A stretch of 64,000 nucleotides of DNA from Crambe crambe (lineage: Eukaryota; Porifera; Demospongiae; Poecilosclerida; Crambeidae): NCBI GenBank assembly GCA_963924555.1, contig OZ004586.1:2934501-2998500 (forward strand), given 5' to 3'. Shown piece after piece: positions 138 to 58,442 of this stretch. The notes under the pieces were generated by a model, which was not told where the DNA came from, did no database searches, and worked only from the letters and a program-made list of their open reading frames with translations. Numbering within the stretch: position 1 is the stretch's first letter; every line of letters starts with the position of its first letter. Made by a program: the position numbers and the translations under genes.

Positions 138-419
138 TGACACAGTGACCAGGAGTGGAATATTCTGTGCCATAGCCACCATCATTGACCGATGCAAGAC
201 AGAGGGAGTGGTGGATGTCTTCCAAGTGGTAAAAGCTCTCCGTGTCCAGAAACCAGGGGCTGTGCCAACTCTGGTGAGTTGTATAGCAGGAAGATGTCTT
301 GCTAACTCTTTATGGAGATACAATCATTCATTATGCAGGCAAATTACAAGACCTTATTTGATGCCACGCTTATATTCTTAGACTCATTTGATACTTATGC
401 CAACTTTCAAAACATTTAG
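138..419 (+). CDS. Gene A, 3' end of a receptor tyrosine phosphatase (D2 C-terminus), partial
   Basis: These are the last two coding exons (138-273 and 339-419) of a long receptor phosphatase whose rest lies left of the window. The first starts in phase 2 after a TTTCTAG acceptor and encodes S-D-T-V-T-R-S-G. In the other copies this completes the D2 loop [10 protein letters not shown], with the HC on the preceding exon. It continues through the [10 protein letters not shown]-loop region. The last exon begins [11 protein letters not shown] and ends FQNI-stop. Both exons match the ends of genes C, D, E and G almost base for base, including intron length class. The family role is the second, usually non-catalytic, PTP domain of a membrane phosphatase. 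Confidence 0.85.
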
Positions 420-890
420 CTAATGCATTTAGCTGGGTATTTGTAACTAGCTAGTTATACATGTTGTTTGTTTGTTTGTTGCAAAGTGATTCTATCCATA
501 TTAGCTATTAGAAGATACTAAGGACCACATGTGAGGTCACAATGTTGATTTATCAGGGACATTAGAGATGTTGAGGCTAGTAAAACTATAGCCTCACCAC
601 TTTATTGGGGACAATTATATCCAAAATCCCCCTCTAATTGCATAATCTAAGAGGCCTAAAATCTTCCCAGGGGCATGCTCCCAGACTCCCCTATATACGT
701 AGATGGCATGCTTTAGCATGCAATTGTATTGGCCTCACCACTTCAATTTTGTCACTGAATAGATGTTATGGCAGAGTTTTATCTAACTTCTCACCATTAA
801 GTTTAGCTATAGCTAGGGACCAAGGAATAACACTATAAAGCTAGCTATAGCTAATAGTAAAATAACAGTATGCGTTTCAAAGGTAAACAA
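420..890. repeat. Duplicated 3' flank of long receptor genes
   Basis: No gene is seen. The stretch holds a flank found after every long gene: a (GTTT)n-like run, the words CCCATGTGAGGTCACAATG (ACATGTGAGG here), then a block near 590-735 with GAGGCCTAAAATCTTCC and GGCATGCT. Matching blocks lie near 12840-13035, 24790-24975, 34620-34815 and 52310-52510. They mark the ends of the tandem duplication unit. Confidence 0.7.
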
Positions 891-893
891 AAA

Positions 894-966
894 CCCACAC
901 AGCTAGGGCATAGATACTATGGCTAGGGACATACATACCAGGTTATTACTATTCAGTAAGGTGTGG
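894..966 (+). promoter_or_regulatory. Shared receptor promoter module, gene B copy
   Basis: A forkhead-like GTAAACA (about 882-888) is followed by CCCACACAGCTAGGG (894-908) and GGTGTGG (960-966), 71 bases before the gene B start codon. The same ordered words occur upstream of genes C, F, G, I and J. The reverse of GGTGTGG is a CACCC-type box. Promoter function is inferred from conservation and position. Confidence 0.5.
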
Positions 967-1030
967 TTTCATTTCATTCTATACCAAGTGAGTTAGTTAG
1001 CAGGCTACTTCCCTCTCACACCAGAAGACC

Positions 1031-3551: not shown

Positions 3552-3780
3552 GTAGTGGATCAAGGTAGGTTATCAGAATTGTTTAGACTATGGATGTATG
3601 CATGCCTGTAGCTATAGTGTCTGTTAATATAAATGTTAACATTGTGCACTAACTAGTCCCCATAATTCATGATGAGATGTAGAAGAGGTTGGAAAGTTAC
3701 AAGGGCCACCCTCCTCAAGTGGGTGGGATACCTGACCCATCCAGGCCCTATATGTAGAAGTAGCTAGCTGGTTATGGGAT

Positions 3781-3876
3781 ACAATCATTTATTATATGCA
3801 GGAAAATAACAAGGCCTTATTTTGATGCCACATCACTTAGCTATGTTCTTGGACTCATTAAATTTTGAGACTTCAC
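3781..3876 (+). pseudogene. Relic of the long-receptor terminal exon downstream of gene B
   Basis: TATGCAGG followed by AAAATAACAAGGCCTTATTTTGATGCC and then TTCTTGGACTCATT lines up with the acceptor and last exon of the long receptors ([16 protein letters not shown]). It carries indels and no open frame. A matching relic lies at 38701-38800 after gene F. It indicates that the short genes sit in units that once ended like long genes. Confidence 0.65.
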
Positions 3877-4880: not shown

Positions 4881-4942
4881 CCCACATAGCTAGGGGCCAT
4901 AAATGGATGATTTACTATAACTACAGTATATATAGGGTGTGG
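4881..4942 (+). promoter_or_regulatory. Shared receptor promoter module, gene C copy
   Basis: CCCACATAGCTAGGG (4881-4895) and GGTGTGG (4936-4942) with TATATAG directly before the latter, 84 bases before the ATG at 5026. The forkhead-like word seen in B, F and I is altered here (GTATACA). Confidence 0.5.
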
Positions 4943-5025
4943 CTTTATGACTTCATTCTATCCTTGCTTCCTACTCATATCAAGTGAGTTAGCTAAATCT
5001 ATTTACCCTCTTACACCAGAAGACC

Positions 5026-8000
5026 ATGTTGAAGAGCAGTGTGCTAGTTACAGTACTAATGATGATAGTATGTCTAGTATCAACTCTCGTCATGTCAGTC
5101 CAGAGTCAAGGTGAGTGCACAGACTGCTATGTCTTTAACTTGAGCAATAGCTACTTTTAGCTATTAGCTATACAGTGTGTGTGTTAGACTGTAGCAGCTA
5201 GTATCATATACGAGAGTGGAGTAACTGGTTTGATATATGCAGGACCTCCTACTAACTTCATGGTTAGACAGATTGGGATAAATAAAGTGAGACTCTCCTG
5301 GACACCATCACGCTTTTCTCCTAGTAGGGGATACCTAATAACAAGTGACACAAGACCTACAGACTTCAGTGCTGGCATACGAATAGCAAGTGGAATGTCT
5401 ACTAGTCGTGATGTAGGACAGCAACCAAATACAGTTACTTATTGGCTTGTTGCACTTTATATGACTGAAATAGTAGTAGGACCTGTGAGTGGCACTGTAA
5501 GAGGTGAGGAAATGTCATATATGTACAATCAGTAACTAACTAAAATGTTCAATCAGATTTCAGCAGGCCAATAAATATCACATTCTCATCACTAACTGCC
5601 ACTTCTGTAACCATATTCTGGACCAAACCTCCATTCAGTCTCCCAATGGATGTGTACAGAGTAGAACTAAGTGGTGTACAACAGTTTTGTCAAGAAGTTG
5701 AGGATCGCAAATCTAAGATGACCACTGGTATTTCCACAGTGGAGTTTACTAACCTACAGGTATTCAGTATTTACAACGTAACCATTACTGTTGTATTACC
5801 AAGTGGATTCAGTGCTCCTCTGACACCAACTGTAGAGTTCACTACAAAGGCAGCTGGTACGTATGATCATGCAATGAAATATAGAGCTAATAATACTAAT
5901 GGTTTTCTCTGCTGCAGCACCTACTGCTCCCCCACGCAACATACATACTCCCTCTACCACCTCCAGAAGTGTCAGTGTGTCCTGGTCAAAAATTGATTGT
6001 ATTGAACGCAATGGTCCAATCACTAACTACACAGTGGAATTCCAAGAAGCTCTGATCCCTGGTGTGGTGGTGAATAGGACCTTCATAGCTAGCGGACTCA
6101 CTCCTTACACAAACTACACCTTCAGAGTTGCTGGAGTCAATAACAATGACACTGGACCTTTTACTGATGTAATCAGCATTCAGACAGAAGAAGAAAGTTA
6201 GTACTATCTTTATAATTATAACTAGTGATACTAAAGTAGCTATAAACTAACTTGTAATAAAAATTGTATAGGTCCTGGTCCTGTGTCTAACCTCGCTGGT
6301 ACTCCTAAGTTCACTTCCATTGTACTCACTTGGAGTCCACCTCAAGAACCTAATGGAGTCATCATCAGTTATGAAGTCACTTACACAGTCAATGGCAACA
6401 ATACTGTCAGAGTCAACACCTCAGACTTGAGCACTACATTCACTATTCCATCATTGACTCCACAAACAAGAGTCTCTGCTATTAAAGTCACTGCCTACAC
6501 AAGAATAGGTCGAGGGGAACCTGCTAATTTGCCTGATCAGACTACACTTGAGTTACGTGAGTTATTTCCCCTATACATGCCTCATAATAATATACGTAAT
6601 GTATTGGTGCTACTTGCAGCTGTAGTGATGAATGTCATGGTGGAGATGTTATCTAATACTTCAGTTAATGTTTCATGGGAAAGTATTGACATTTCAGAGC
6701 TCACAGTAAGCTACAGAGTCTACTACTACTATAATCAGTCTGAAAATATGGATGCCTTTGTCAATGCTTCTAGCAACTCTATTGTTATTGATAATCTGAT
6801 AAGTAATGTGGAGTACTTGTTTTATGTGGTGGTTATTGCTGAAGTTGATGGGCAGATACTTATTGGACGGAGATCAATGACTGTAATGATAGTGGCTGTG
6901 TCAACAACTGAATGTATGTTATGTTACCATGATTGGCTCATAATAACTATTTTTAATTTAGCTCCTGGCAGTACAACAGTTGGAATCATAGTAGGAGTAA
7001 TACTCCTGATCATTAGCATTGCCATAGTAACTGTACTGGCAATTTTCCTAGGATTTTGGTTTAAAAGGTATAGTCACATCTGTAATAATAATTACACTGT
7101 ACATTATTATTTTGTAAAAGACAAAATGGAAAACCTGACAAGAATATTGCAGTAGGATATGCAACGCCAAGATCAACTATAGTAACCATACCGGAGCATA
7201 CTTCAGGTAATGAAGGGGTTTTAATTTCTCACTATTATGACGATGTCAGCCACGATAGCTAATTATTACCCGCAGGATCAGAGATTGAAGATTTTCCTGT
7301 GGATAAAGTTTTAGTGGAAGGTGAAGGTGTATCATTCAAGGTGGCAGTGAGGGGAGACCCAGAACCGACACTCACCTGGTACCATGAAGGAAATGAATTG
7401 ATATCTGATTACTCCCTTAAGATCCAACCTGACGGCACTCTAGTGATAGCCTCAGCTGAGCTCAGACACAATGGAGTGTATAAGTTATTGGCATGGAACA
7501 GCAGTGGTATAGCTGAAAGAAAGCTTAACCTCACTGTCCAACAGGAAGGTGGAGAGATAAATGCTCCCTCGAAGGGGAATATAGAGGTTGACTTCACAGC
7601 TGTACCAGTGGCTGACTTTGGGGATTATGTGGCAAAGAATCATTCAAAGTCAGATGCAGGGTTCAGAAAACTATACGAAGTAAGACCACATGGACACATA
7701 AATATACTGTTATCAGACTATTAGATTGCACAGACTCAGCCTGAATCTAATCCTCATAATTTTGATGAATAATCTTAGAGTCTTGATAATGGTGATGAGC
7801 ATCCTAAAACTGTTGGACTCTGCAAAGAAAACAAGAAACTGAATCGATTTGTTAATATCACTGTGTGTAAGTGGTTAGTGGATAGATACAAGCCTTATCA
7901 ATTTTTCATGATGCCATTTATCACATGTAGATGACCATAATCGTATAATACTTAATGCCCTACCAGAGTATGAAGATTGTCAGAGGGAGTTCATCAATGC

Positions 8001-11000
8001 CTGCTATGTCGATGTAAAGAAGTCTCAATCCTTGCATGATATGTGATCTTAGTAATGTAGCCACACACAGTATACGTAGCTAGTTAGAGTGATTAGTTAT
8101 TTTTGTTATAGGGGTATTCACAGCTGCAAAGATTCATAACAACTCAAGGTATTACTCATCAATACATGACTTGTTGAAGCATCATTTGTGATCTCCACTG
8201 TGTTAATTGTGCAGGTCCTAAAGATTGCACACTTGTTGATTTTTGGAGACTAGTTTGGCAGGAGAGACCTCTAACCATTGTCATGGTAACCAACATCAAG
8301 GAAGGTAGCAAGGTTAAATGTGAGCAGTATTGGCCAGACAGTGGAAGCAAGAATTATGGTCCCTTCAAGGTCACCCTGATGGAATACCAGGTGTTTGCTG
8401 ACTACATCATCAGGACATTTCAAGTTAATGTGAGAAAAGCTACACACAGTGATCCACTGAATTGGTCATTGCAGCCATCTTTATTGCTACATGCATGCAT
8501 GTATGCATGCAGTTAGAAGGCAGTTCTGCAAGTCGTCCTTGGAAACTTAATCAGTTTCACTTCACATCCTGGCCTGACCATGGAGTGCCTGAATATGCCA
8601 CTTCAATGTTGTCCTTTCATCGCAGGATCCTCTCACAGCACAAGAGCAGAAGAGGCCCCATGTTAGTACACTGCAGGTAAACATTCATGCATGATGTTTT
8701 TGGAGGTCAGAGACTTGGCTTTTAGTTGAGGTGCTTTATGGATTTACGTATATGGACTGTTTGAGTCCTGGAAACTGCAATTTTGATAACAATGACAACA
8801 AGCATCTGTAGTGCTTAGGAATATTTCTAAGAATGGTAACTAGCAACATGTTTCTTCTAGCTATGATGAATGATGAACCACAAACACCACTATACAATAT
8901 ATGGCATACAAACACACTATAGATTCCTTTGTAGATATTCCAATGCATCTGTAATGTTACCATAATGGTTCTTCAGTATTTTTTTTATAGAAGTGAGACT
9001 AAACAATTCGGAGTTCTTATGACTTAGTGACAATTTTTGAGTCCAAATATGTGTAGCTATGATAACTATGAAGACCAGCATCTGTAGTTAATGCGTTTGG
9101 GGATTTTCTAAGAATGGTAACTGTTTTTGAGTTCTTTTAGAGCCATTAAGAAAGTTTTGACAATAGCAAAACACATTAAGCAATAAACAGTTACATAGTA
9201 TATCTAAAGAGTTGGTACTTAAGGTTGTTCATTTAGTAAATTGCATTGTGTTTGTGTCTTATGTAACTAAAAATTAAAAAAAAACATTATATGTAAACCA
9301 GCTATAGAAATAGTGTACAATGCATGAGAAAAAACTTAGCTACTGTTTGCTTATCTACATCATGCAGTGTTTGAGTGAACTGGTACATTCATCTGTATTG
9401 ACTATCATAACATTATACATGCAGTGCTGGAGTGCTGGTACAGTACATTCATCTGCATTGACTATATTACGTACATGCAGTGCTGGAGTACTAGTACAGT
9501 ACATTCATCTGCACTGACTATATTACATGCAGTGCTGGAGTGGGGAGAACTGGTACATTCATATGTATTGATATTGTTCTTGAACAAGTCAAGAAGGAAA
9601 ACAAAGTGGACATTGCAGGGACCATCAATAAACTGAGGCATCAGCGCATGAAGATGGTCCAGACTCCAGTAAGGCTTAGGATGCGTATACAAATGATTAG
9701 TTATAGCAAAACTAATATCTTTCCCCCAAAATGTCATTCCAAAATAAGTATCCTAAAATTAATTTTACCTATACATACTTCTTCATAAAGGAGCAATACA
9801 TTTTCATCCATGATGCTATCTTGGAGTCAGTGATGTGTGGGGACACTGAGATAAATGCCACTAACCTCAGATCCACACTGATGAAGATGAACAAGAAGAA
9901 CAAGAAAGATAACTTAATGAAGCTTGAGACACAATTCAAGGTCTAAAGAGAGTTCTTGACCATATAAGACTAAACAATGCTCTCTCATTTTACAGGTGTT
10001 GAATCTTGTATCACCTAAACAGAGTGATGTCATATGCACTGCTGCACTCCAACACTCAGATAAGAATCGCCTCAAAGATTTCCTACCATGTAATTATTTA
10101 ACATTTAAGCAATGTGATGTATAATTATTCACATGTACACAGCTGATAAGCATCGTGTGATTTTGAGTGGAGAGTATCCTGACTACATACATGCTGTTGC
10201 TGCCAATGTAAGCTCATTAACTTCATAATAATTTATACTGAAGTATGTAACAGATGCTAGTTTTATCTCATTTTGTAATTTTGTATCAATTGTTGGCTTT
10301 TAAAGATGCTTTTTCAAAAATCTAGTCTCCAAGCATGCTAAGTAATATATTAACTATTCAGCACGTGCTATTGAAGGTTCTGTTGCATGCACTTCATGAT
10401 CTTACACATTATTATGTACATGCAGGCCTACAAGCAAAAGAAGGCTTATATCATAGCAGAGGGCCCAATGTCCTCCACCGTCAGAAACATGTGGAAAGTC
10501 ATCTGTGATAGGAAGTGTGGGGCAGTCATCATGTTATCCAACCTTATCGAGAATGGAATGGTATGTGCACATGTGAATCATAAGTAGGTACACACTATAA
10601 ATATGACTGTATGTACATATAGTATTAGCTATGCCTACAGAATATGAATTTTACTACATTAATGAAGTGCAGAGATTGTCTACTGTATGATGCTAAGTAG
10701 TGAAATTTCTTTGCTAAGTAATAGCATACCGTAAATCTGGAAAATTTCGTAGTAGATTTAATTTCGTAAGTGACGAAAATAAAAAACATGAAATTTTCTA
10801 TCAAACGAACAATAATAAAGTACGAATAAATAGAGCAATGAAAATTTGGATAAACGGTCAAATCCACGTGCACGTGTGTTGATCGCGATCGATTGAATTG
10901 GAAAGCCAAGATATCTCTAAGGAAGTTTCTCAAGGCTAGAGATGGACTCCCAGACCCCAAGGGTTCACTCTCCATGCCCTCAGCAACAATTTCTTTGGCG

Positions 11001-12712: not shown

Positions 12713-12839
12713 CTAATGCATTTAGCTGGGTAGTTGGTTACTCATGTAACTAGCTATACATGTTGTTCGTTTGTTTGTTGCAAAGTAATGAATTGTTATT
12801 AGAAGATACTAAGGACCCCATGTGAGGTCACAATGCTGT

Positions 12840-38300: not shown

Positions 38301-38385
38301 TGGAATGGAAATGGATATTTGTGTAGCATATGGACATGTAAACAACACAAATGCCGCAAATATCAGAGAAAGTACATTTAAATAA
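35365..38385 (+). CDS. Gene F, short FN3 receptor with two ITIM-like tyrosines
   Basis: Exons: 35365-35449 (signal peptide), 35812-36072, 36126-36425, 36487-36765, 36841-37125, 37176-37460 (five FN3), 37522-37678 (helix ELSVAVVITFLLTIILN and IYHHHDAGIKK), 37815-37877 (V-Q-Y-E-T-V), 38289-38385 (V-A-Y-G-H-V, ending STFK-stop). About 603 residues with all phases closing. The ectodomain is almost identical to gene B and very close to long genes C and G, but the tail has no phosphatase. Both tail tyrosines fit [SIVL]-x-Y-x-x-[ILV], the pattern that binds SH2 domains of phosphatases when phosphorylated in vertebrate inhibitory receptors. Whether it works this way here is inference. A dead signal-peptide exon copy lies at 35708-35776, and a relic of the long-gene terminal exon lies downstream. 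Confidence 0.82.
35708..35776 (+). pseudogene. Duplicated signal-peptide exon inside intron 1 of gene F
   Basis: ATGTTGAAGAGCAGTGTGC at 35708 repeats the first exon but lacks a GT donor after the CATCATGTCACAG end. It is the counterpart of 1332-1399 in gene B, so the duplication predates the split of B and F. Confidence 0.55.
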
Positions 38386-48100: not shown

Positions 48101-51100
48101 TGGCTGAACATACAATACCTACAGGTGATACACGACCAATTCACCAACACCCCTACAGAGTTCCTATGGCTTGGCAAGGACAAGTAAGGCAAGAAATACA
48201 ATCAATGCTAAAACTTGGAGTCATTGAGCCCTCCGACAGTCCTTGGGCCTCACCCATTGTGCCAGTGAAAAAGAAGGATGGAACAATCAGACTGTGCATA
48301 GACTACCGGAAGCTAAATTCAGTAACCTCAGATGACACCTACCAGATGCCCCGTGTGGACGAACTCATAGAAAACTTGGGAGATGCAGTTTACATCACTA
48401 CCTTGGATTTGACAAAGGGATATTACCAAGTCCCAGTGGCTGAAATGGACAGGGAGAAGACAGCCTTCACCACTCCCTTTGGCAAGTACCGGTTTAGAGC
48501 CATGCCCTTTGGCTTGAAGGGAGCACCCACAACCTTTCAAAGGATGATGGACCGAATCCTTGGAGATTGCTGCAAGTATGCAGCCGCTTATTTGGATGAT
48601 GTGATCATCTTCAGCAGAGACTGGGACAGCCACCTGAAACACATCAGAGATGTCTTTGATAGGCTCTCCAGGGCTGGCCTAACTGTCAAGCGTAAGAAGT
48701 GTCAATTTGCCATGAGAGAATGCTCGTACCTGGGTCATATTGTAGGATGTGGCCTAGTCCGACCAGAGACTGCAAAGGTAGAAGCTATCCGTGACTTCAA
48801 AGTACCCCAAACAAAAAAAGATGTCAGAGCATTCCTTGGATTGGTCGGCTATTACAGAAAATTTATTCCCAACTTCGCTGAAATTTCTGCTTGTCTCACA
48901 GACCTCACCAAGAACATTGCTCCAGCCAAAGTGAGGTGGCAACCACAGCACCAGACAGCCTTCAACAAGCTCAAACTCAGTCTACAGAAAGAACCTATTC
49001 TAGTCTGCCCAGACTATACCAAACCATTTTGGCTCCAGACAGATGCCTCGGACAAGGGAATCGGAGCAGTTCTCAGCCAGAGAGACAACACAGGTACAGA
49101 CCACCCAGTCGCTTTCTATTCTAGAAAACTATTGCCAAGGGAAATCAAGTACTCCACAACAGAAAAGGAATGTTTGGCTATCGTGAATTCCCTCAAACAC
49201 TATGCAGTCTACCTGCTGGGGCGACAGTTTGTTATTCAGACTGACCATGGAGCTCTGAAGTTCTTGCACACCATGAAAAATTCAAATGGACGGCTAACCA
49301 GGTGGGCACTCGCTCTTCAGCCATTTAGCTTCACCGTCATGCATCGACCAGGAAAAATCCACGGTAACGCCGATGGCCTATCCAGACAGAGTTGGGGAGA
49401 AGACACTGAACGGACTGACGATGTCAGTCCAGAAGAAGGGGAGGGGAGTGTTAGGGATACACCCCTAACAGTTACATAGGACAGAATGCAGGACATGGAC
49501 AAACAACATTAACACACAATCAGCACATTTTGAGTTAAGCTTTATGCTCATCCTCACATGATTCTATGATTAGATCATCTTGCTAATATAAGAGAGCAAA
49601 TTCATTCTTTTGTTTTCTGGTTCACTTTTGCTTGAAAAGATATTTATTCTCAAAACTTGACTATTGTTAGCTTCATAGCCAGTCGACAAGTGGACCCATT
49701 GTGATAGGGGTAGTAGATCCCTAACACATGCATAACCAGCAATAGACTATTATTGATCTGTGCTTGTTCAGTATTTCTTATGATCATACCTTAACTGATC
49801 TACATAGGAGCAGTATATCTTCATCCATGATGCCATCTTGGAGTCAGTAATGTGTGGGGACACTGAGATAAACAGTAGTAACCTCAGGACTGCTTTGAAC
49901 AAGCTAAACAAACAGAGTGGGAGAGATCAAACAACAGACATGGCCACACAATTCAAGGTAATGCTCTATACAATAACAGAGGAATCTCCAAATACTCTTG
50001 GGACCCAGCATTTTGTCCTTTGTAGCTAGCCTGAGAGGTTGTCTTTGGAAAGTGTATACATACAAAGGTATTTTAAGTTGAGAGGTTTGTCCTCTTTCAG
50101 AGTGTTCTTTATCAAAGGTTCCACTGTAATCACAAGATTTACGTATAATAATAAAGAATTCATTGTATCAGGTATTGGATCTCGTATCTCCTAAACAGAG
50201 TGATGCCATATGCACTGCTGCACTTCAGCATTCTGATAAAAATCGCTCCATGGAATTCCTGCCATGTGAGTATTGTGTAGCTATACTGGGTTCAATTTGA
50301 ATTCTTAAAATTGGATCCAACTTAAACACTATCCCAAAGAGATGGTCAAATCATGATTGCATCATTATTTGCAGCTGATAAGTACCGTGTGATTTTGAGT
50401 GGAGAGTATCCTGACTACATACATGCTGTTGCTGCTAATGTACGTAAGCTCATTAGGGCAAGTAGAGTGAGCACTACTGTAAATTTCAGCTTAGACAAAA
50501 TTATATTCATGTAGGCCTATAAGCAAAAGAAGGCTTATATCATAGCAGAGGGTCCAATGTCCTCCACCGTCAGAAACATGTGGAAAGTTATCTTTGATAG
50601 GAAGTGTGGAGCAGTCATCATGTTGTCTGACCTTATTGAGAATGGAATGGTGTGTTTATAATTATATTCAATCTTTAATTACACAACAGGCTCAGTACAT
50701 ACAGTGAATTGGAAGTTGGTTGTCCAAATCTCAAGGAGCTGTGTAAACTTGAGGCTGTTCCTGAATAGATGTGTGGCTTTTCCTCAATAGTTCAAGCAGT
50801 CAATTTATGCTTTACATTTGGACAACCAACTTGCAATTCACTGCATGTACAGTGAATTGCATGCAAAATCTAAAGGAGCTGTGTAAACTTGAGGCTGTTC
50901 CTGAATAGATGTATGGCATATTTTTCATTGCAGTCAATTTGTGCTTTAAATTTGGACAACCAACTTGCAATTCACTGAGGCTAAAATAAATCAACAGTTG
51001 ATAGCAAAACAGTTCTTTTAATGATAACGTGAATTGCAAGTTGGTTGTCCAAAAGATGCAAAATCTAAAGGAGCTGTGTAAACTTGAGGCTGTTCCTGAA

Positions 51101-52226
51101 TAGATGTGTGGCTTTTCCTCAATAGGTGCAAGTTTTATTGCAGTCAATTCACTTTAACACGACAGGCTAAAATAATTCAACAGTTGATAGCAAAACAATT
51201 CTTTTAATGATAACAACCTTTAATTTCCGAATTTATATGGCTAATGTACATGGTGATATTAATACAGGAGAGTAGTTGTCAGTACTGGCCAGTAGAGGGA
51301 CAAGTGGCTCAGTTTGGGGAATTCACAGTGGAATTGGTCGGTCAAGAGGATTTGAGTGGGTTTAATATTAGAACACTTGAGATCCAACAGAGCAAGGTAC
51401 GTACATGTAGGATTAAACTACACATGTACTGAATCAACATATGAGATTATTCCATTACTATAGGCCAACAAGGCCCATCATGTGGCTCAGTTCCACATCA
51501 CTTGCTGGAGACCCGATGGAGTGTGTTCCAACCTCAAGAGTGTGGTGGATGTTGTGGAGGAGCTCTCCAAAATACAAAGGAAGACAGGAAACAAACCTGT
51601 ATTCATACACTGCAGGTATACTCACATAGCTAGCTATTGTATCACTTACTTGAAATCCTTTCCTTGGCATTAATAGTATGTCAAATTGGTAAGGGATCAT
51701 CGATGGTGTACAGTTATAGGATGCAGTTTATTCTTGTGACCACCATTGGGTTATCACTAGAAGTAGTTTATTTTTGTGATGACCATTGGGTATAATATAC
51801 GTATACTGAACCATTGGGTTATAGTGATAATAATGGAGTTTCATTATCACAACAGACATTGGATAAACCTATAAACTAATAGATGCTTGCCCAAAATATA
51901 AGTTAGCAATGAACATTCTTTCTGCACTGCTAATTTTTTTCTAGTGACACAGTGACCAGGAGTGGAATGTTCTGTGCCATAGCCACCATCATTGACCGAT
52001 GCAAGACAGAGGGAGTGGTGGATGTCTTCCAAGTGGTAAAGTCTCTCCGTGTCCAGAAACCAGGGGCTGTGCCAACTCTGGTGAGTTGTATTGCAGGAAG
52101 ATGTCTTGCTAACTCTTTATGGAGATGTATATATTCATTATGCAGGCAAATTACAAGACCTTATTTGATGCCACACTTATATTCTTGGACTCATTTGATA
52201 CTTATGCCAACTTTCAAAACATTTAG
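39182..52226 (+). CDS. Gene G, long receptor tyrosine phosphatase carrying an intronic LTR retrotransposon
   Basis: Exons: 39182-39266, 39398-39655, 39709-40014, 40082-40369, 40445-40729, 40783-41073, 41145-41259, 41320-41408, 41459-41853, 42006-42093, 42154-42236, 42493-42529, 42933-43147, 43203-43366, 43837-43972, then after the 5.3-kb insertion 49808-49957, 50172-50265, 50375-50439, 50515-50649, 51268-51396, 51464-51615, 51945-52080, 52146-52226. About 1258 residues, phases closing throughout. Signal peptide, five FN3, helix [20 protein letters not shown], Ig without disulfide cysteines, D1 with WPDHG and [10 protein letters not shown] (Cys899), D2 with C-x5-R (Cys1186). Promoter and ectodomain resemble gene C. 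The cytoplasmic half and its intronic MITEs resemble D and E, so the gene looks mosaic. The insertion lies in a same-sense intron between the active-site exon and the next D1 exon, leaving the splice sites intact; effect on expression unknown. Confidence 0.85.
44451..44728 (+). repeat. 5' LTR of element 1
   Basis: 278 bases, starting TGTTAGGGATACACCCCTAA and ending ATCCCTAACA. I found no difference from the 3' copy at 49449-49726. The first 22 bases are self-complementary (TGTTAGGG..CCCTAACA). A TATAAGAGAG word near 44600 could serve as the internal promoter (inference). Confidence 0.93.
44729..44760 (+). promoter_or_regulatory. Primer-binding-site region of element 1
   Basis: Directly after the 5' LTR, the sequence TTTGGTGGCAGCGATTCGGG sits where reverse transcription is primed by a tRNA 3' end. 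TGG followed by an acceptor-stem-like stretch fits; I cannot assign the tRNA. Confidence 0.5.
44827..49479 (+). CDS. Gag-Pol polyprotein of element 1 (Gag-PR-IN-RT-RH order)
   Basis: One uninterrupted frame of 1550 codons. Residues about 40-180 are a charged coiled coil rich in Glu and Arg. The gag core follows, then a zinc knuckle C-x2-C-x4-H-x4-C (Cys391 to Cys404). The aspartic protease has D-S-G at 444-446. Integrase comes next: HHCC with His685, His692, Cys722, Cys725, and catalytic Asp754, Asp813, Glu849 (D-x35-E). Reverse transcriptase follows with YLDD at 1255-1258, then RNase H with Asp1406. Gag and Pol are joined with no stop or frameshift. The stop codon lies inside the 3' LTR (31 bases in). 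All catalytic residues that I looked for are present, so it may still be active. Confidence 0.93.
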   Translation: MSENQAAELPRRSSLRTAKAKGGQEEAAPQPVGMEAVLRLFQEFRADDARKEETRREEERLREEQRRLDDQRRREEEAARRQQEGERAAQVQQTILAMLAAQTEREETRRVQDAERQRLEEERRQQELVLKLQEDERRRQEERARREREAEQRKQDEERREADRKTALRQRDTPRMSAMTEDADIEDFIANFEIHMEEIQMEADRWMSYLRPLLNNKARDALAMLSVNGQRDYQTARNRILDFCGIRQERLGDQFWNATRPKGDSYTRALTRWSRLLTRYIEGAETIAEVKDRILKEKLLQTLPSAAAAHVRDKDPDTAARAAILADRFFEDRHSYPDHPRWQKKFFTQKQTGSTDTQPTKYEDSTPPRPVKTASPTPLKTPSEKAKGIQCYNCKEYGHISARCPKKVMMIEESMTATFDSKNNKPNMIEGQIEGVVYKDMLLDSGADGTVVHRRVVPKDAYTGKRRWAVGVTGKPKECPTARVKFQFGEHETTLEVLVMEPKFSALLGWDLPFFPSLMKEVVDKAVASQISVQAVSTRAQAQKVAIQEKQNEADTASSGATTTPLELKEDVEELPNFSDDMFLPPRPEKQKQTKSQKRERAKCFQSTLLAEDGMEKVGTEQLKVAQKQDETLQDLWTQAQSDKDSTFMVEDGVLLHVSTNKQDETFTQIVVPARYRSWIFKLAHRAPMAGHFGTKKTQEKILQQFYWPKLGADVSRWCRECQECQKGNKTLQKKAELIPLPVIDQPFKRVAMDIVGPLRRTTTGFKYILTFMDFATRYAEAVPLKKIDAETVADALCQIFTRLGIPDEILSDQGSNFMSTLMAAVFNLLQVKHIRTSPYHPQTDGMLERFHATLKAMLRKTCPASKEWDRWLPYACFAYRDTPHSATGFSPFDLMFGRQVRGPLTIVKEQWTGKEKTPESIVSFVLRLQEKLLETAEIAKETEAKSKAASKKWYDQKARDRHFEVGTQVLALIPDGQDKLSAQWHGPYTILEQVSPVSYRIETPERKKKTRQFHVNMLKKWTTPTNVMNAMVAQEAEDDDEGELQLYMLDTELVGETVINANLSPQQNDELQQLLGEVTATLSNTPGLTDMAEHTIPTGDTRPIHQHPYRVPMAWQGQVRQEIQSMLKLGVIEPSDSPWASPIVPVKKKDGTIRLCIDYRKLNSVTSDDTYQMPRVDELIENLGDAVYITTLDLTKGYYQVPVAEMDREKTAFTTPFGKYRFRAMPFGLKGAPTTFQRMMDRILGDCCKYAAAYLDDVIIFSRDWDSHLKHIRDVFDRLSRAGLTVKRKKCQFAMRECSYLGHIVGCGLVRPETAKVEAIRDFKVPQTKKDVRAFLGLVGYYRKFIPNFAEISACLTDLTKNIAPAKVRWQPQHQTAFNKLKLSLQKEPILVCPDYTKPFWLQTDASDKGIGAVLSQRDNTGTDHPVAFYSRKLLPREIKYSTTEKECLAIVNSLKHYAVYLLGRQFVIQTDHGALKFLHTMKNSNGRLTRWALALQPFSFTVMHRPGKIHGNADGLSRQSWGEDTERTDDVSPEEGEGSVRDTPLTVT
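49431..49448 (+). other. Polypurine tract of element 1
   Basis: AGAAGAAGGGGAGGGGAG immediately before the 3' LTR, the expected primer for plus-strand DNA synthesis. It is also translated as part of the Pol C-terminus. Confidence 0.85.
49449..49726 (+). repeat. 3' LTR of element 1
   Basis: 278 bases, same sequence as the 5' LTR as far as I can read, TG..CA ends. It contains the gag-pol stop codon at 49477-49479. Confidence 0.93.
50695..51165. repeat. Expanded direct/inverted repeat cluster in a gene G intron
   Basis: At least three rounds of GTGAATTG(C)AAGTTGGTTGTCC, CTAAAGGAGCTGTGTAAACT and GAATAGATGTGTGGCTTTTCC alternate with the reverse complement TTGGACAACCAACTTGCAATT. It is larger than the matching cluster in gene D. 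Confidence 0.7.
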
Positions 52227-52309
52227 CTAATGGATTTAGCTGGGTAGTTGGTTACTCATGTAACTAGCTATACATGTTGTTTGTTTGTTTGTTGCAAAGT
52301 TATTAGAAG

Positions 52310-52515: not shown

Positions 52516-52631
52516 GATCACAATAATGATATGGCCTTGCCACAGAATAGATGTTATGGCAGAGTTTATCACCATTTATAGTAATTAGCTATAATACATT
52601 TAGTTTAGCTATAGCTAAGGATCATAATTCA

Positions 52632-52831
52632 TAGGCGTAGGAACCAGGGGCTATAGCCCCCCAATATTTTCTAGCTAATCAGTACAGTTATTCCGATAAT
52701 TATTGTGTAAGGGTTAAAATTTTGCTTCGTGCTCCACGTGGGAGGAGGCACATCCCCTCCCCCCGGCCATGCAGTCTACTATATAGTTCAAAATCTAGCC
52801 CCTCCAAAGTGAAATTGCTTCCTACACCTAT
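52632..52831. mobile_element. MITE with TAGGCGTAGGAA termini
   Basis: TAGGCGTAGGAACCAGGGG at the left and CTTCCTACACCTA at the right form imperfect inverted ends of a 200-base element with a C-rich interior. It borders the broken receptor copy that follows. Confidence 0.55.
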
Positions 52832-52845
52832 GTAATTGGACCTTT

Positions 52846-53830
52846 CCTACACAAACTACGTATACCTTCAGAGTTGCTGGAGTTAATGACACAGTTAATG
52901 GCAACAATACTGTCAGAGTTAGCTAACACCTCAGACTTGAGCACTACATTCATTATGGAGAGACTATTATGAGACTATTATCAAAGGTTTAAACATTAGA
53001 AGTGGTACCTCTTACATCTCCAAGTAAGTGCATAAAGAGCTACAGATGTGGAAGTAATTAGCTACTATACCATTACATATTCATGGGGTATGTAAAAGTC
53101 TATAATATGATTAGCAAAATTTACTAGTTATTGCATGAAAAACTCTATTTCTCTAAATAGTTATCACTTATAGAGCTAGCTAGCTACATTCCTGCAGGTG
53201 CAAGTGTGACATTCAATAGAACAGAATTGTCTGTTGTTGTTGTCATTACCTTTCTCTCGACTGTCATACTTAACACTTCCATCATCTTTGTCATTTACTG
53301 TAGCTATCTACCATTGTCACAAAGAAGGAATAAGGAAAGAGTGAGTAGCTACATATTTAAGCTATCAGTAATTACGTAATTAGGCAGGCCCTATACCAAT
53401 CATTGTAAATACAGTCAGCTCAGATAATGAGTATGCTCAATGTAGCTATATGCTACAGGAAATTCCTCAGGGCATGTCAGTGCATGTCCTTACACTTACG
53501 TAGCATGTAGCCATTATTATGAACTTGCACTGCTTTTTTTATTTGAACAGAAATGAACTATCAAAAAGAAGTTCATTACGAAACTGTGACCTCTAAGTAA
53601 GTTATACTTTAGTATCAACAATGCAGTTATACACAGGCATGTAGTGGATCAAGACAGGCCATCTGTAGTTAGCTCTACTTGTATCAATTAGTTATAAGTC
53701 TGTAATTAATTTGTACGTATTATGACAAAATTGCTGGTAATGGAATGGAAATGGATATTTGTGTGGCATATGGACATGTGGCCGCAACACAAAGTGCCCC
53801 ACTGCCTCCAGCAGAGAAAGTATAGCTACG
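52846..53830 (+). pseudogene. Gene H, collapsed short FN3 receptor
   Basis: Fragments of FN3-3 (ACAAACTACG..TTCAGAGTTGCTGGAGT), FN3-4 (GGCAACAATACTGTCAGAGTT, then GACTTGAGCACTACATTCATT) and FN3-5 (GAGAGACTATTATG..GTGGTACCTCTTACATCTCC) are fused by internal deletions. The helix exon (53198-53340) follows, with a 4-base insertion after TACTGTAG that shifts the frame. The tail exon near 53550-53597 has an extra A that breaks the YETV frame. The last exon near 53735-53825 is still readable as MEMDICVAYGH..PLPPAEKV-stop. It is closest to gene I. The signal peptide and first two FN3 domains are gone. Confidence 0.75.
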
Positions 53831-54407
53831 TATGATAACATTTAGCTAAGTAGCTAGCTAACTGTGTTATTAGAAACAGTTTATTTTATTGCTTTAATTG
53901 GCTATAACTAAAGTTAAGTGTGTTATTTTATTTAGCGGATTACATGATGAACATGATAACATTATGATGTGTGTATTTTTTGAAGCTTCACCTCCTTTAG
54001 CTGTCATAATATAGCATGCTGGTACTTTATAATGGCTATACGTAGCTATGTTTATTAGGCACTTTGATCGTTCTATAGCTATAACTGCTATAACTTTCTC
54101 ATTTCTTAATCAAAATTAATTTCAAATTTCAAACACCAGCAATCAGCATGCATGGAACAGATTGCAAAGTTAATGAAATTCATAAAGATACATGTAGCTA
54201 CCATTGTGAGAACACATGATACTATTATATACATAATGTTATGACAGTTCTATCTACAACTTATAGCTATAGGAAGTTGGGACTGGTGTTTTTAGATTTA
54301 CATAAATTGTCATTATGAATGTGTATTGTAACTTGCTACTACGTAAGCTAGTTACGTAGTATTATTATTGACAGAAATAACATTGTATGTTTCAAAGTAA
54401 ACAAAAA
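53831..54407. other. Intergenic between H and I
   Basis: No gene is seen. It contains a weak copy of the common 3' flank (CATGGAACAGATTGCAAAG, then GTGAGAACACATGATACT near 54155-54230). Confidence 0.5.
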
Positions 54408-54467
54408 CCCACATAGCCAGAAGTATAGACACACCCATTAATGAAGTTTCACTACAGTGGGGTGTGG
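54408..54467 (+). promoter_or_regulatory. Shared receptor promoter module, gene I copy
   Basis: GTAAACA (about 54397), CCCACATAGCCAG (54408-54420) and GGGGTGTGG (GGTGTGG 54461-54467), 82 bases before the ATG at 54549. Confidence 0.5.
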
Positions 54468-54548
54468 CTTTATAATCTATTACACTTTCCTACTCTAGAC
54501 CCAGTGAGTTAGTTAGTAGGCCACCTCATAGTTCACCACCAGAGGACC

Positions 54549-57302
54549 ATGTTGAAGAGCAGCATGCTAGTCACAGTACTAATGATGTTGCTATGTCTAG
54601 TATCAACTCTCATCATATCAGTGCAAAGTCAAGGTGAGTGCATAGGCAGCCATGAAAAGCTGAATGATTAAAATAATAGTGTCTCTAACTTTCTAACAAG
54701 AGCAAGTTATACATAAAAAGACACATTTTAAGAGTGTCAGAGGAGGAAAACTGATGGTGTGTGATAGCTAGTATAGTTATATATGAGGGTTTGATATTCA
54801 TGCAGGACAATCTCCTACTAACCTCATGGTTAGACAAGTTGGGATAAATAGAGTGAGAGTCTCCTGGACACCACCACCCAATCCTCCTAGAGATGGATAC
54901 CGAATAACAATAAATGCAGACTTCGGTGCTGGCATATCAGTAGCATCTACAGCATCTAGTCATGATGTAGCACAGCAACCTGGTACTACAGTTAATTATT
55001 ATCTGGTTACACTTTATGGGATTGTAACAGTAGTAGGACCTGTGAGTATCACTGTAAGAGGTGAGAAAATGTGTACGTAGCTACAAAATTATCACTATCT
55101 TCAACCAGATTTTACTACACCAATAAATATCACTTCATCATCACTGACTGCCACATCTGTGACCATATCCTGGACCCAGCCTCCATTCAGTCTCCAAATG
55201 GATGAGTATAGAGTAGAACTAAGACGAGTAACTGGTGCAAGGCAGTTGTGTATAAATATTGAGGATTACAAGTCCAAGATAACCACTAGTAGTGCTTCTA
55301 TTCCATCAGTAGCTTTTTCTAACCTGCACGAATTCAGTATTTACCAAGTAACAATACTTGTTATAATAACAAGTGGATTCAATGCTACTCTGACACCAAC
55401 TGTAGAGTTCACTACAAAGGCAGCTGGTATGGACATACACTACATGTAACTATTAATAATGCTAATGGTTTGTTCTACTGCAGCACCTACTGCTCCCCCA
55501 CACAACATAAACTTTCCCTCTACCACCTCCAGAAGTGTCAGTGTGTCTTGGACACAAATCAGATGCATTGAACACAATGGTCCAATCACTAACTACACAG
55601 TGGAATTCCGAAAAGTGGGAGGGGCTCTGATCCCTGGTGTGGTAGTGAATAGGACCTTCACAGCTAGTGGACTCTCTCCTTATACAAACTACACCTTCAG
55701 AGTTGCTGGAGTCAATGATAATGGCACTGGACCCTTTTCTAATGTAACCAGTATTCTGACAGAAGAAGAAAGTAATAAGCTAGTTAGCTATTTATAATTG
55801 TTACATTAAGTTCAGTTAATGTATAGCTCCTGGTCCTGTATCTGACCTCACTGGTACTCCTAAGTTCACTTCCATTGTACTCACTTGGAGTCCACCTCAA
55901 GAACCTAATGGAGTCATCATCAGTTATGAAGTCACTTACACAGTCAATGGCAACAATACTGTCAGAGTCAACACCTCAGATTTTAGCACTACATTCACTA
56001 TCCCATCATTGACTCCACAAACAAGAGTCTCTGCTATTACAGTCACTGCTTACACAAGAATAGGTCGAGGAGAACCTGCTAATTTGCCTGATCAGATTAC
56101 CTTTGCAGCACCATGTATGTAATCCCTTATTATAAATCCACTCACTCACTGTTTCATTTCATTTCTCAGCCATGGTGATGAGTGTAGAAGTAGAAGCCCT
56201 GTCTCATTCCTCAGTCAAAGTGTCCTGGGACAAGTCTCAGTCTAATGTCCTTACCATTACAAACTACACAATGTACTATGGACTGAAGGAGGTTGATGAG
56301 AGAGAGAGGAGTCAGCTATTTCTCTCAGTTTCCAGTACCAGAGATTTCGTGGTAGTTGATAACTTGTCCACTGAGTACCAGTTTCAGGTCGCTGCTACTG
56401 CTGAAGCCAATGGAGAGACTATTATGGGACAAAGGTCAAAAGTTCAAACATTAGAAGTGGTACCTCTTACATCTCTAAGTAAGTGCATATAGAAAGAAAT
56501 TCTCATTAGCTACTATATTCATGGGGTGAAATTCTGTAATATGATTAGCAAACATTTACTAGTTAGCTACATGTACTGCATCATTAATTTACTTCTCTAT
56601 ATAGTTATCACTTAATACATTCCTGCAGGTGCTATTGTGACATGTAGTAGAACAGAATTGTCTGTTGCTATCATTGTTACCTTTCTCTTGACTGTCGTAC
56701 TTAACACTTCCATCATCTTTGTCACTTACTGTATCTACCATCGTCACAAAGAAGGAATAAGGAAAGAGTGAGTAGCTATATAAGCTAACACAGAAGACTA
56801 GTAATTAATCAGGCCACATTCAACCCCTATACTAATCATTTAGACACAGTCAGCTCAGATAACTATACTTTGGAGTATGCTCAATGTATATGGTCCTATA
56901 GCTACAGGAAATTCCTCAATGCATGTCCTCACACTTCTGTAGCTACACATGTAGCTATTATTATGATTTTACACTCCCTTTTGTATTTGAACAGAAATGG
57001 ACCATCGAAAGAAGTTCATTATGAAACTGTGACTTCTAAGTAAGTTACTTTAGTATCGATCAGCAATGCAGTTAGGTATGTAGTGGATAAGACAGGCCAT
57101 TTGTAGTTAGCTACGTATAAGATAAATAATGTTCAGACTATGTTTGTATGTATAATGCTTATAAGCTGTGTAAATTAATTTGTATTATGACAGAGGTGCT
57201 GCTAAAGGAATTGAAATGGATGTTTGTGCAGCATATGGACAAGTGACCACAACACAGAGTGCCCCACTGCCTCCAGCAGAGAAAGTATACGATAACATTT
57301 AA
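54549..57302 (+). CDS. Gene I, short FN3 receptor with YETV and YDNI tail motifs
   Basis: Exons: 54549-54633 (signal peptide), 54806-55060, 55109-55426, 55484-55771, 55827-56114, 56170-56478 (five FN3), 56629-56767 (helix LSVAIIVTFLLTVVLN, then IYHRHKEGIRK), 56995-57039 (V-H-Y-E-T-V), 57194-57302 (A-A-Y-G-Q-V, then a proline stretch and KVYDNI-stop). About 611 residues with phases closing. The fifth FN3 and the tail differ clearly from B and F, so this is an older branch of the short class. VHYETV fits the ITIM pattern; YDNI fits the Y-x-N pattern bound by Grb2-type SH2 domains. Both are short patterns and need testing. It is the best-preserved short gene in the window. Confidence 0.85.
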
Positions 57303-58236
57303 AAATAACAAAGTAGCTAACTGTATTATTAGAAACAGTTTATTTTACACTCTTTAGCTATTACTTTAGATGCCTAGCTAAAGTCAAATGTTTGCCCCAC
57401 AGTGAAGAGAGTGTTATATTTAGAACGCACATACTTAGTAACATAGAGTGTGTGTATTTTCACCCTCTTTAGTTATGTTATTGTAGCTAATTAGCAAATA
57501 TTACATATAATAATATTATAGCATGCTGGTATTTTATATAATTATAATGGCTATAGTTATTCCATTTACTTGGCACCTTGATCATTTACTATAACTTTCT
57601 TAATTCTTCACATTTAAAACACCAACAGAAAGTAGTAGATAATAATACAATCTCTGTTGATGCATTAAACTAGAAATTTGGTCAAGAAAGTTATAGCAGT
57701 TATAGCGAATGACACATCATGCATGTACTCATGTATCTTAGCAGCTATAGCTATACATATGTACATAGCTACAGTGCTGAGGGACACGTACGTACGTAGC
57801 TAAAGAGGACAGCTGAATTTAATTACACTATGACAAACCCTTAACCACAAGTCTTGAATCCAGGCTCTCACGGGTTTGACTGTAGTTCATGGAATAGATT
57901 TCAAAGGTACTGAAGGATCCCATGTGAGAACACATGATGCCATTATCGCAGAGTTTTATCACACTTATAACAACTTATAGTTATAGTTATAGGAAGTTGG
58001 GACCAGAAGCTACGTATACATGTAATAGTCTACTTAAAGCATTTATTCTGAGCAATAATTTAGGACTGTAATACTATTTAGATATAAAGGAAAGGAACAA
58101 AAAAATGTCATTATGTGGTAGTATAATTTAGCTATAATATAATCAGGGCTAAAGGTGCATAGCTAGCTTACTGGCTACACACTAGTATAACACTATATAA
58201 GTATTATCGCAGAAATAACATTGCATGTTAAAAAGT
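57303..58236. other. Intergenic between I and J
   Basis: No gene is seen. It carries a copy of the common 3' flank (GTTCATGGAATAGATTTCAAAGG, GATCCCATGTGAGAACACATG near 57894-57940) and many TAGCTA words. Confidence 0.55.
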
Positions 58237-58316
58237 AAACACATAGCTGAAGTATAGACATAATTAGAAGTATAGACACACCCATAAATAAAGCTTCACT
58301 ACAATATAGGGTGTGG
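58237..58316 (+). promoter_or_regulatory. Shared receptor promoter module, gene J copy
   Basis: GTAAACACATAGCTGAAG near 58235 and GGGTGTGG (GGTGTGG 58310-58316), 80 bases before the ATG at 58390. The CCCACA part is reduced to ACACA. Confidence 0.4.
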
Positions 58317-58389
58317 CTTTATAGTGTATTGTATACTTTCCTCTAGGGAGTTAGTTAGCAGACTACTTACCCTCTCACACCAGAGGACC

Positions 58390-58442
58390 ATGTTGAAGAG
58401 CAGTGTGCTACTTGAAGTACTAATGATGATACTATGTCTAGT
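58390..58442 (+). pseudogene. Gene J, signal-peptide exon cut by element 2
   Basis: ATGTTGAAGAGCAGTGTGC starts a receptor signal peptide (MLKSSVLLEVLMMILCLV) that stops matching the family right after TATGTCTAGT. The next base begins the LTR of element 2. The rest of the exon and all later exons are not found up to the window end, so the gene is broken here or continues beyond 64000. Confidence 0.7.

What the first reader, a model, noticed from the sequence alone, without database searches (positions are those of the whole stretch)
138..58442. Tandem paired-receptor locus: phosphatase and tyrosine-tail receptors sharing one ectodomain
Seen: long (A, C, E, G) and short (B, F, I, H) genes lie in one orientation and share nearly identical FN3 ectodomains, while their cytoplasmic parts are either Ig-PTP-PTP or a short tail with V-x-Y-E-T-V. 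Known: paired immune receptors of vertebrates combine similar ectodomains with opposing tails. Inference: long members could dephosphorylate short members that bind the same ligand, giving a tunable recognition system, possibly in self/non-self or cell-contact sensing of a sponge.
Basis: partly seen in the sequence, partly recalled or inferred. Interest (0 to 1): 0.88.

Follow-up and report, generated by a model that had tools for sequence, protein, structure and literature searches.

The report
Sponge receptor pairs: phosphatase versus tyrosine-tail
A sponge chromosome carries long rows of neighbouring cell-surface receptors that share the same fast-changing outer part but end inside the cell either in a phosphatase enzyme or in a short tail with tyrosines, an arrangement also seen in proteins of two other sponges that looks like an independent version of our own paired immune receptors.

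Summary
The finding is real and larger than reported. In the window, three long genes (23 exons each: signal peptide, five FN3 exons, TM, Ig, tandem PTP) and three short genes (same signal and FN3 exons, another TM) model as complete GT-AG genes.

In a sample of the same contig the ectodomain tree does not separate the classes (11 label changes; shuffled mean 10.3). The outermost FN3 shows diversifying change (omega 1.74), while PTP and tail exons are constrained. Neighbouring short and long genes share that outer domain (83% versus 69%; six pairs). A second array sits on C13. Ephydatia and Amphimedon also have both classes, ectodomains 79-90% alike within a species but 26-33% between species.

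Best reading: a demosponge paired-receptor system with a phosphatase as one partner. Ligand, expression, polarity of signalling and any role in allorecognition are untested.

The parts
138..419 (+). Lg0: last two exons (end of PTP D2 and C-terminus) of a long receptor whose front lies upstream of the window
   Evidence: exon matches with AG/GT; FN3, TM and Ig exons upstream in L045
1031..3551 (+). S1: short receptor, 8 exons, 576 aa; signal peptide, five FN3 exons, short-class TM, tail with VQYETV; no last tail exon found
   Evidence: model open, all GT-AG
5026..12712 (+). Lg1: long receptor, 23 exons, 1254 aa; signal peptide, five FN3 exons, TM, Ig, PTP D1 ([15 protein letters not shown]), PTP D2 ([10 protein letters not shown])
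   Evidence: model open, all GT-AG; strong TM segment within residues 501-537
18736..24669 (+). X: Ig-PTP-PTP exons without FN3 or TM exons of this family; either decapitated or joined to the other ectodomain gene at 15142-17630
   Evidence: a similar order at C9 2.7226/2.7250 Mb
26859..34517 (+). Lg2: long receptor, 23 exons, 1260 aa
   Evidence: model open, all GT-AG; Pfam fn3, I-set, two Y_phosphatase stretches
35365..38385 (+). S2: short receptor, 9 exons, 603 aa; VQYETV exon and a degraded last exon (AYGHV kept, VYDNI lost)
   Evidence: model open, all GT-AG
39182..52226 (+). Lg3: long receptor, 23 exons, 1257 aa, with a retroelement in intron 15
   Evidence: model open, all GT-AG; identical 278-bp repeats at 44451-44728 and 49449-49726
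52660..53850 (+). Remnant of a short receptor: parts of FN3, TM, VHYETV exon and last exon
54549..57302 (+). S3: short receptor, 9 exons, 611 aa; tail with VHYETV, AAYGQV and KVYDNI
   Evidence: model open, all GT-AG
54806..55060 (+). Example of the outermost FN3 exon (FNa), the exon type with diversifying change
56995..57039 (+). VxYETV tail exon of S3, phase 2-2
   Evidence: omega 0.41 over 16 copies
57194..57302 (+). Last tail exon of S3 (GAAKGIEMDVCAAYGQV...KVYDNI stop)
   Evidence: omega 0.39 over 18 copies

Best explanation
The locus is part of a demosponge paired-receptor system. Shown from sequence: neighbouring genes code for type I receptors with one shared FN3 ectodomain and mainly two cytoplasmic designs, a receptor tyrosine phosphatase (TM, cytoplasmic Ig, active-looking PTP D1, D2) and a short receptor whose full tail carries two or three YxxPhi motifs. 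Inferred: both members of a neighbouring pair bind the same or overlapping ligands through the fast-changing outer FN3; the short tail is phosphorylated by Src-type kinases and read by SH2 proteins; the long receptor lowers that phosphorylation, either by dephosphorylating the tail when both gather at one contact or by competing for ligand. The cell's answer then depends on the ratio of the two classes. Gene conversion and duplication of short-long units keep partner ectodomains matched while the outer domain diversifies. Which class promotes and which restrains a response is not known.
For: Complete models of both classes. Ectodomain tree of 30 genes (16 short, 12 long, 2 set apart): class needs 11 changes, shuffled mean 10.3, as low in 402 of 500 shuffles. 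Neighbouring short and long genes are sisters with support in L036, L040 and L042/L043 and share FNa at 83% (six pairs) versus 69% over all short x long, 0 of 5000 random draws as high. FNa omega 1.74, 2dlnL 18.5 against omega 1 (29 copies); short alone 2.22, long alone 1.54; last tail exon 0.39, VxYETV exon 0.41, Ig 0.36, the seven PTP exons tested 0.04-0.32. WPD in 8 of 8 readable copies of that exon, the arginine of CX5R in 8 of 9. Upstream sequence of S3 matches that of Lg1 and Lg3 at 73-76% (alignment). A short and a long gene of a second array on C13 share FNb and FNc at 76-86%. Ephydatia and Amphimedon have both classes, 79-90% alike within species, 26-33% between. Tail motif M-x-x-C-x-A-Y-G-x-[VI] shared with Ephydatia; C13 versus Ephydatia tail 0 of 10000 shuffles. 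SH2-kinase genes on C15 and an SH2-SH2-PTP gene on C18 are possible writers and readers.
Against: No RNA, protein or ligand data; no test that the long PTP meets the short tail. Neighbours can resemble each other through local duplication alone. The L045 pair shares FNa at only 66%, and the L035 and L045 pairs are unresolved on the tree. The TM tree (one change) is partly circular, because class was named from the TM match. L034 and L033 have a long-type TM without PTP, L034 with a short-like last exon, so TM and tail are not strictly linked. On C13 FNd and FNe are not shared between the classes (50-53%; one gene of each class). Variable FNa sites are not confined to loops in a moderate model (entropy 0.81 in strands, 0.89 elsewhere; pLDDT 72). 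Tail homology to Amphimedon is weak (hhalign probability 9.5; 15-39 of 2000 shuffles for one tail, 84-531 of 2000 for another; 4536 of 10000 against C13). One array (C9 2.34-2.46 Mb) looks short only.
Confidence: 0.6

Rival explanations
1. Adhesion or tissue-sorting receptors: a homophilic or matrix-adhesion family, the long form signalling like LAR-type RPTPs and the short form a non-enzymatic co-adhesion molecule. Pairing is a by-product of tandem duplication and exon shuffling.
For: FN3 ectodomains with RPTP cytoplasmic parts are typical of adhesion receptors (recalled); the folds nearest to the FNa model include FN3 domains of PTPRD and LAR, though none at E <= 0.001. Tandem arrays duplicate easily.
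Against: Outer-domain omega above 1 in both classes is unusual for a plain adhesion module; the short tail exons are constrained and carry tyrosine motifs; both classes recur in Ephydatia and Amphimedon.
Confidence: 0.2
2. Short receptors are decoys or dominant-negative forms: they take up ligand and deny it to the phosphatase; the tail tyrosines serve trafficking only (YxxPhi endocytosis signals).
For: YxxPhi is also a sorting signal (recalled); S1 and S2 have shortened tails and are otherwise intact.
Against: The motifs come in a fixed context (MxxCxAYGxPhi, VYDN) that recurs on C9 and C13, and the first of them in Ephydatia.
Confidence: 0.12
3. Pathogen or symbiont sensors rather than self/non-self sensors: the same paired design, but the diversifying outer FN3 follows microbial ligands. 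This overlaps with the best explanation and differs in the ligand.
For: Large, fast-changing germline arrays resemble expansions proposed as pathogen-driven for Xenopus FcR-like receptors (PMC2413239, passages).
Against: No test here distinguishes ligands.
Confidence: 0.35
4. The short genes are non-functional 5' remnants of long genes produced by array turnover.
For: One clear remnant in the window (52660-53850), others in L039, L040 and L043; no last tail exon found behind S1.
Against: S1, S2, S3 open end to end; their tail exons do not occur in the long models and are constrained (omega 0.39 and 0.41; the short TM, 0.80, is not distinguishable from 1); the class also exists on C13 and in other sponges.
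Confidence: 0.04

Closest known systems
Vertebrate paired immune receptors (KIR, LILR/PIR, FcR-like)
   Different: FN3 instead of Ig ectodomain; one partner carries a phosphatase itself, where vertebrate inhibitory partners recruit SHP-1/2 through ITIMs (recalled); no adaptor-coupled class shown
Botryllus fester / fester co-receptor (FF/FcoR) pairs
   Same: Neighbouring receptor genes that form cognate pairs; FcoR tails with ITIM, hemITAM and core YxxI/L/V motifs; allorecognition (PMC12065747, passages)
   Different: FcoRs have Ig and sushi domains and no phosphatase partner is named in the passages read; homology was not tested here
Hydractinia Alr family
   Same: Invertebrate recognition genes with ITIM/ITAM motifs on candidates (as cited in PMC12065747, passages)
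   Different: Ig-superfamily ectodomains (recalled); no RPTP partner named in the passages read
Demosponge Ig-PTP-PTP receptors of Ephydatia, Amphimedon, Halichondria, Geodia (database proteins)
   Same: TM, then an Ig without the two usual cysteines, then tandem PTP (read by eye in P0006, P0009, P0012, P0031); 48-56% identity in the 14 best rows; Ephydatia and Amphimedon also have short partners
   Different: Ectodomains differ between species (FN3 plus Ig, or sushi in Halichondria); named only as RPTP or uncharacterised
R3 and LAR-type receptor PTPs
   Same: FN3 ectodomain and PTP; tandem PTP as in LAR-type (recalled)
   Different: R3 has one PTP (PMC5336234, abstract and passages); LAR-type has extracellular Ig (recalled), here the only Ig follows the TM

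Membership tests
Paired receptors | Closely similar ectodomains in two signalling classes | tested here: met
   67-89% in the window; class not separated on the ectodomain tree
Paired receptors | Class-specific TM and cytoplasmic region | tested here: met
   PTP versus tyrosine tail in six complete models; two TM exon types (partly circular); exception L034
Paired receptors | Tandem clustering of both classes | tested here: met
   window and 12 of 20 chosen C9 stretches: L035, L036, L038-L043, L045, L046, L049, L050, the last two with the Ig position
Paired receptors | Rapidly diversifying ligand-facing domain | tested here: met
   FNa omega 1.74; that this domain binds ligand is inferred
Paired receptors | Shared ligand, co-expression and opposite signals | not testable with these tools
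   no RNA or binding data
Paired receptors of vertebrates (Ig superfamily) | Immunoglobulin ectodomain | tested here: not met
   Pfam finds only FN3 before the TM in Lg2 and S1; works like, is not a member by descent
Receptor-type tyrosine phosphatases with tandem PTP | Signal peptide, one TM, two PTP domains, D1 with HCX5R and WPD | tested here: met
   activity not tested
R3 RPTP | FN3 ectodomain with a single PTP domain | tested here: not met
   two PTP stretches
ITIM-bearing receptors | [SIVL]-x-Y-x-x-[ILV] in the tail (consensus recalled) | tested here: met
   VQYETV or VHYETV in S1-S3 and in most tail exons; SHP binding not tested
ITAM-bearing receptors | Yxx[LI]-x(6-12)-Yxx[LI] (consensus recalled) | tested here: not met
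   YGxV and YDNI are 14 residues apart in S3 and the first ends in V
Sponge aggregation-factor allorecognition genes | Calx-beta / Wreath domains (recalled) | tested here: not met
   no such Pfam match in Lg2 or S1 at E <= 0.1

The most novel reading that the evidence does not exclude
An animal paired-receptor system, older than the split of the sampled demosponges and independent of the immunoglobulin-based ones, in which one partner is itself the phosphatase for the other partner's phosphotyrosine tail, with both partners kept matched by gene conversion while an outer FN3 domain diversifies; it would be the germline-coded cell-contact recognition receptor that sponge allorecognition has lacked.
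Probability: 0.25. Interest if true: 0.93.

Novelty: new variant of a known kind. Interest (0 to 1): 0.82.

Why it matters
If right, the paired-receptor logic (one ectodomain, two opposing tails) arose in animals without lymphocytes or Ig receptors of that kind, with the enzyme built into one partner. It would give sponge self/non-self and microbe recognition a concrete set of receptor candidates, make the signalling question testable with two proteins and one tail, and show that ectodomain matching between opposing receptors can persist while the ectodomain itself changes to about 30% identity between species.

Tried and rejected
Single-gene or alternative-end explanation: rejected because each gene has its own signal exon, TM exon and terminal exon. 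Kinase-bearing class on the same array: no listed kinase match on C9 2.3-3.5 Mb, but only 121 of 1944 candidates were scored and the list was cut, so this is a weak negative. Homologues of the short TM and tail by direct protein search: none at E <= 10 among 173 candidates; the short forms of other sponges were found only through the ectodomain. ITAM reading of the tail: spacing not met. Variable FNa positions in loops: not supported. Idea that the short tail descends from the juxtamembrane region of other sponges' long forms (EVQYATI in Ephydatia, GQYEEV in Amphimedon, AIYDNLI in Geodia) against EVHYETV and KVYDNI here: suggestive, not tested. Fold search of FNa: FN3 domains among the best rows, none at E <= 0.001. 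Papers: nine searches, one of them empty (65); no listed title or abstract start described such sponge pairs; the library lacks most subscription journals.

Rows dropped: the selection sets leave out copies with a stop, an N, or a match under 85% of the template; tail exons were found by similarity to the templates, which favours conserved ones. Only seven of fourteen PTP exons went into the selection tests. 30 of 52 gene groups entered the ectodomain tree; eight class labels there were set by hand: five long from Ig exons, one short from its tail exon, two long-TM genes without PTP kept apart. Eight neighbouring pairs were named, of which FNa, FNb, FNc and FNd were readable in 6, 7, 7 and 5. 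The comparison of P0135 with P0044 was uninformative because the hydropathy rule misplaced the TM of P0135.
Full report
What was checked. The window is C9:2934501-2998500 of an unnamed 143-Mb assembly. Six-frame reading, self-comparison and splice-site alignment gave exon models for the receptor genes. Three long genes are complete: Lg1, Lg2 and Lg3, 23 exons, 1254, 1260 and 1257 aa, every intron GT-AG, no internal stop. Three short genes are complete: S1, S2 and S3. All begin with a signal exon of one type (most diverged in Lg2) and five FN3 exons in phase 1-1. Long genes then have a TM exon, a juxtamembrane exon, an I-set Ig exon and fourteen PTP exons. Pfam finds four fn3 stretches, I-set and two Y_phosphatase stretches in Lg2, and in S1 four fn3 stretches and no PTP. 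Hydropathy shows one strong segment after the FN3 exons (3.1-3.5), with weaker peaks up to 1.83 inside FN3 exons of Lg1 and Lg3 (S3). The Ig exon has no cysteine and is taken as cytoplasmic. The same order (TM, Ig without the two usual cysteines, PTP, PTP) is read by eye in proteins of Ephydatia, Amphimedon, Halichondria and Geodia (P0012, P0031, P0006, P0009), so it is a trait of a demosponge family and not of this locus alone.

The tail. The short class uses another TM exon. The last exon is degraded in S2 and was not found behind S1. In short genes of the 20 other C9 stretches these exons recur; the five genes read at 2.34-2.45 Mb go straight from TM to the last exon. In the whole genome the last exon gives 75 matches at E <= 1 (75 of 75 candidates scored): 61 rows on C9, 13 on C13, one on C11, a few overlapping; 56 rows reach E <= 0.001, 55 of them on C9. 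The C13 rows are weak by themselves, but one was read directly. The short TM gives 90 matches at E <= 0.1 of 93 candidates; the best 51 rows are all on C9 and many C13 rows follow. The Ig exon, a mark of the long class, gives 88 matches: 20 at 86% or more (19 on C9 2.71-3.06 Mb +, one at 3.25 Mb -), 16 at 57-63% on C9, 12 at 45-51% on C13; the other 40 are partial or other Ig. The FN3d exon gives 150 matches from 474 candidates, 115 of them on C9. These are exon matches and often lower bounds, not gene counts.

Two classes, one ectodomain. On a tree of FNa-FNd from 30 genes (16 short, 12 long, 2 set apart) the class label needs 11 changes, no better than shuffled labels (mean 10.3; as low in 402 of 500). 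On the TM-exon tree it needs one change, but class was named from the TM match, so that result is partly circular; L033 and L034 have a long-type TM without PTP in reach, and L034 a short-like last exon. Sister pairs with support are neighbours: L036 short and long (99/99), L040 short and long (100/99), L042 long and L043 short with a remnant between (93/88); window S1 and S2 group with Lg1 (100/98) and then Lg3 (100/97). The L035 and L045 pairs are unresolved. Neighbouring short and long genes share FNa at 83% (six pairs: 95, 93, 82, 79, 66, 85) against 69% over all short x long, 0 of 5000 draws as high; FNb 83 versus 75, FNc 89 versus 80; FNd 89 versus 87 is not different. Local duplication alone could give some of this. 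On C13 a short and a long gene from two 3.3-kb stretches share FNb (81-86%) and FNc (76%) while matching the C9 templates at 48-61% there; their FNd and FNe are only 50-53% alike, no closer than FNd is to C9 (51-59%).

Selection. Pairwise counts give dN 0.220 and dS 0.097 for FNa over 29 copies, dN above dS in 406 of 406 pairs (pairs are not independent), against ratios 0.61, 0.74, 0.49 and 0.39 for FNb-FNe, 0.34 and 0.46 for the tail exons, 0.21 for the Ig and 0.02-0.20 for seven PTP exons. Maximum likelihood on one tree per exon gives omega 1.74 for FNa (2dlnL 18.5 against 1); FNb 0.84, FNc 0.88 and the short TM 0.80 are not distinguishable from 1; FNd 0.62, FNe 0.56, VxYETV exon 0.41 (2dlnL 5.6), last exon 0.39 (17.7), Ig 0.36, PTP exons 0.04-0.32 are below 1. 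FNa stays above 1 in short genes alone (2.22, 15 copies), long genes alone (1.54, 11 copies, 2dlnL 5.3), the six window copies (2.47) and gap-free columns (1.75); pN/pS 2.09, codon bootstrap 1.58-2.84. These are paralogues with probable gene conversion, so tree-based values are approximate, and the dS of FNa is itself low. The FNa model is moderate (pLDDT 72) and variable residues are not confined to loops.

Other sponges. Proteins P0124-P0126 have no PTP domain. P0126 is named Ephydatia muelleri and Em0011g883a, from which the other Em0011 names are taken to be that species. Their ectodomains are 89-90% identical to the Ephydatia long forms P0012, P0014 and P0029, as close as two long forms are to each other (89%). 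Their gene numbers (883-930) fall beside those of long forms (928-1146), and P0126 shares a contig length with four long forms. Amphimedon P0131, P0140 and P0142 are 79-81% identical to the long P0032. Between the three species ectodomains are 26-33% identical. The Ephydatia tail has MKSCDAYGEI and CYEVV; C13 here has MSTCMAYGQV and VYDNA; C9 has MDVCAAYGHV and VYDNI. C13 against Ephydatia: 0 of 10000 shuffles; C9 against Ephydatia: 56 of 10000, 7-28 of 2000 for four C9 tails. Amphimedon support is weak: 15-39 of 2000 for P0142, 84-531 of 2000 for the other tail, 4536 of 10000 against C13, hhalign probability 9.5. Two histories fit: an old pair whose ectodomains are homogenised within each species, or repeated origin of short forms by truncation. 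The tail shared with Ephydatia favours the first.

Mechanism. D1 looks active: all 8 readable copies of one exon keep WPD and 8 of 9 of another keep the arginine of CX5R, one reads C. D2 keeps cysteine and arginine but has CSDTVTRSG and W-R-P-D, so it is probably weak or inactive (inference). SH2 and kinase matches in one frame on C15, and a PTP match at C18 6539084-6539980 preceded by SH2 matches at 6540260-6540487 and 6540796-6540942 on the same minus strand, give possible writers and readers. That the long receptor acts on the short tail is inference. Upstream sequence of S3 matches that of Lg1 and Lg3 at 73-76%, and the stretch before the ATG aligns in S1, S2, S3, Lg1 and Lg3, which suggests common regulation; Lg2's upstream differs more.

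Known systems. Similar extracellular regions with distinct TM regions mark paired receptors in the Xenopus study (PMC2413239, passages seen). Botryllus has neighbouring FF/FcoR pairs with ITIM, hemITAM or core YxxI/L/V tails, and that review states that candidate allorecognition proteins of sponges, cnidarians and ascidians are not conserved (PMC12065747, passages seen). The R3 RPTP paper defines R3 by a single PTP and reports such a sequence in Amphimedon (PMC5336234, abstract start and passages seen). The Amphimedon grafting paper has none of the words phosphatase, fibronectin, receptor, tyrosine in its main text (PMC5450542, term search). PMC6208332 and PMC12723187 mention FN3 genes in general terms (passages seen). 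No listing of the nine searches showed a description of these pairs.

Verdict.

Noticed in passing
window 15142-17630 and 18736-24669: A gene of another ectodomain family (one exon scores as FN3; many matches on C5 6.6-8.15 Mb) sits directly before Ig-PTP-PTP exons that lack their own ectodomain; a similar order recurs at C9 2.7226/2.7250 Mb, so a chimeric receptor is possible.
   Followed up: partly
window 44451-49726 and about 58.7-63.3 kb: Retroelement with identical 278-bp direct repeats, hence probably young, inside intron 15 of Lg3; a second element lies on the minus strand further on. Described only.
   Followed up: no
window 1332-1407 and 35708-35789: A second, imperfect copy of the signal exon lies between the signal exon and FNa of S1 and S2.
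   Followed up: no
L033 (C9 3.074-3.084 Mb): One gene with ten FN3d exons in a row and a long-type TM; no PTP exon seen within the stretch.
   Followed up: partly
L034 (C9 3.108-3.118 Mb): A possible third class: long-type TM followed by an exon resembling the short last exon (EDIEMDTCVAYI...), no PTP attached.
   Followed up: partly
C9 2.338-2.456 Mb: A minus-strand array with 21 places matching the short TM and no listed Ig-exon match, apparently short only.
   Followed up: partly
C18 6539084-6540942: Two SH2 matches followed by a PTP match (open frame interrupted as by introns) on the minus strand: an SHP-like gene.
   Followed up: no
C5 1.41-1.66 Mb, C9 1.49-1.61 Mb, C12 1.75-1.84 Mb: Clustered SH2 matches, several closely spaced; possible adaptor expansions.
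   Followed up: no
P0014 (Ephydatia), P0009 (Geodia), P0032 (Amphimedon): Their long forms carry YxxPhi-like motifs between TM and Ig (EVQYATI, AIYDNLI, GQYEEV) that resemble the short-tail motifs here; Lg1-Lg3 have none of that kind in this place.
   Followed up: no
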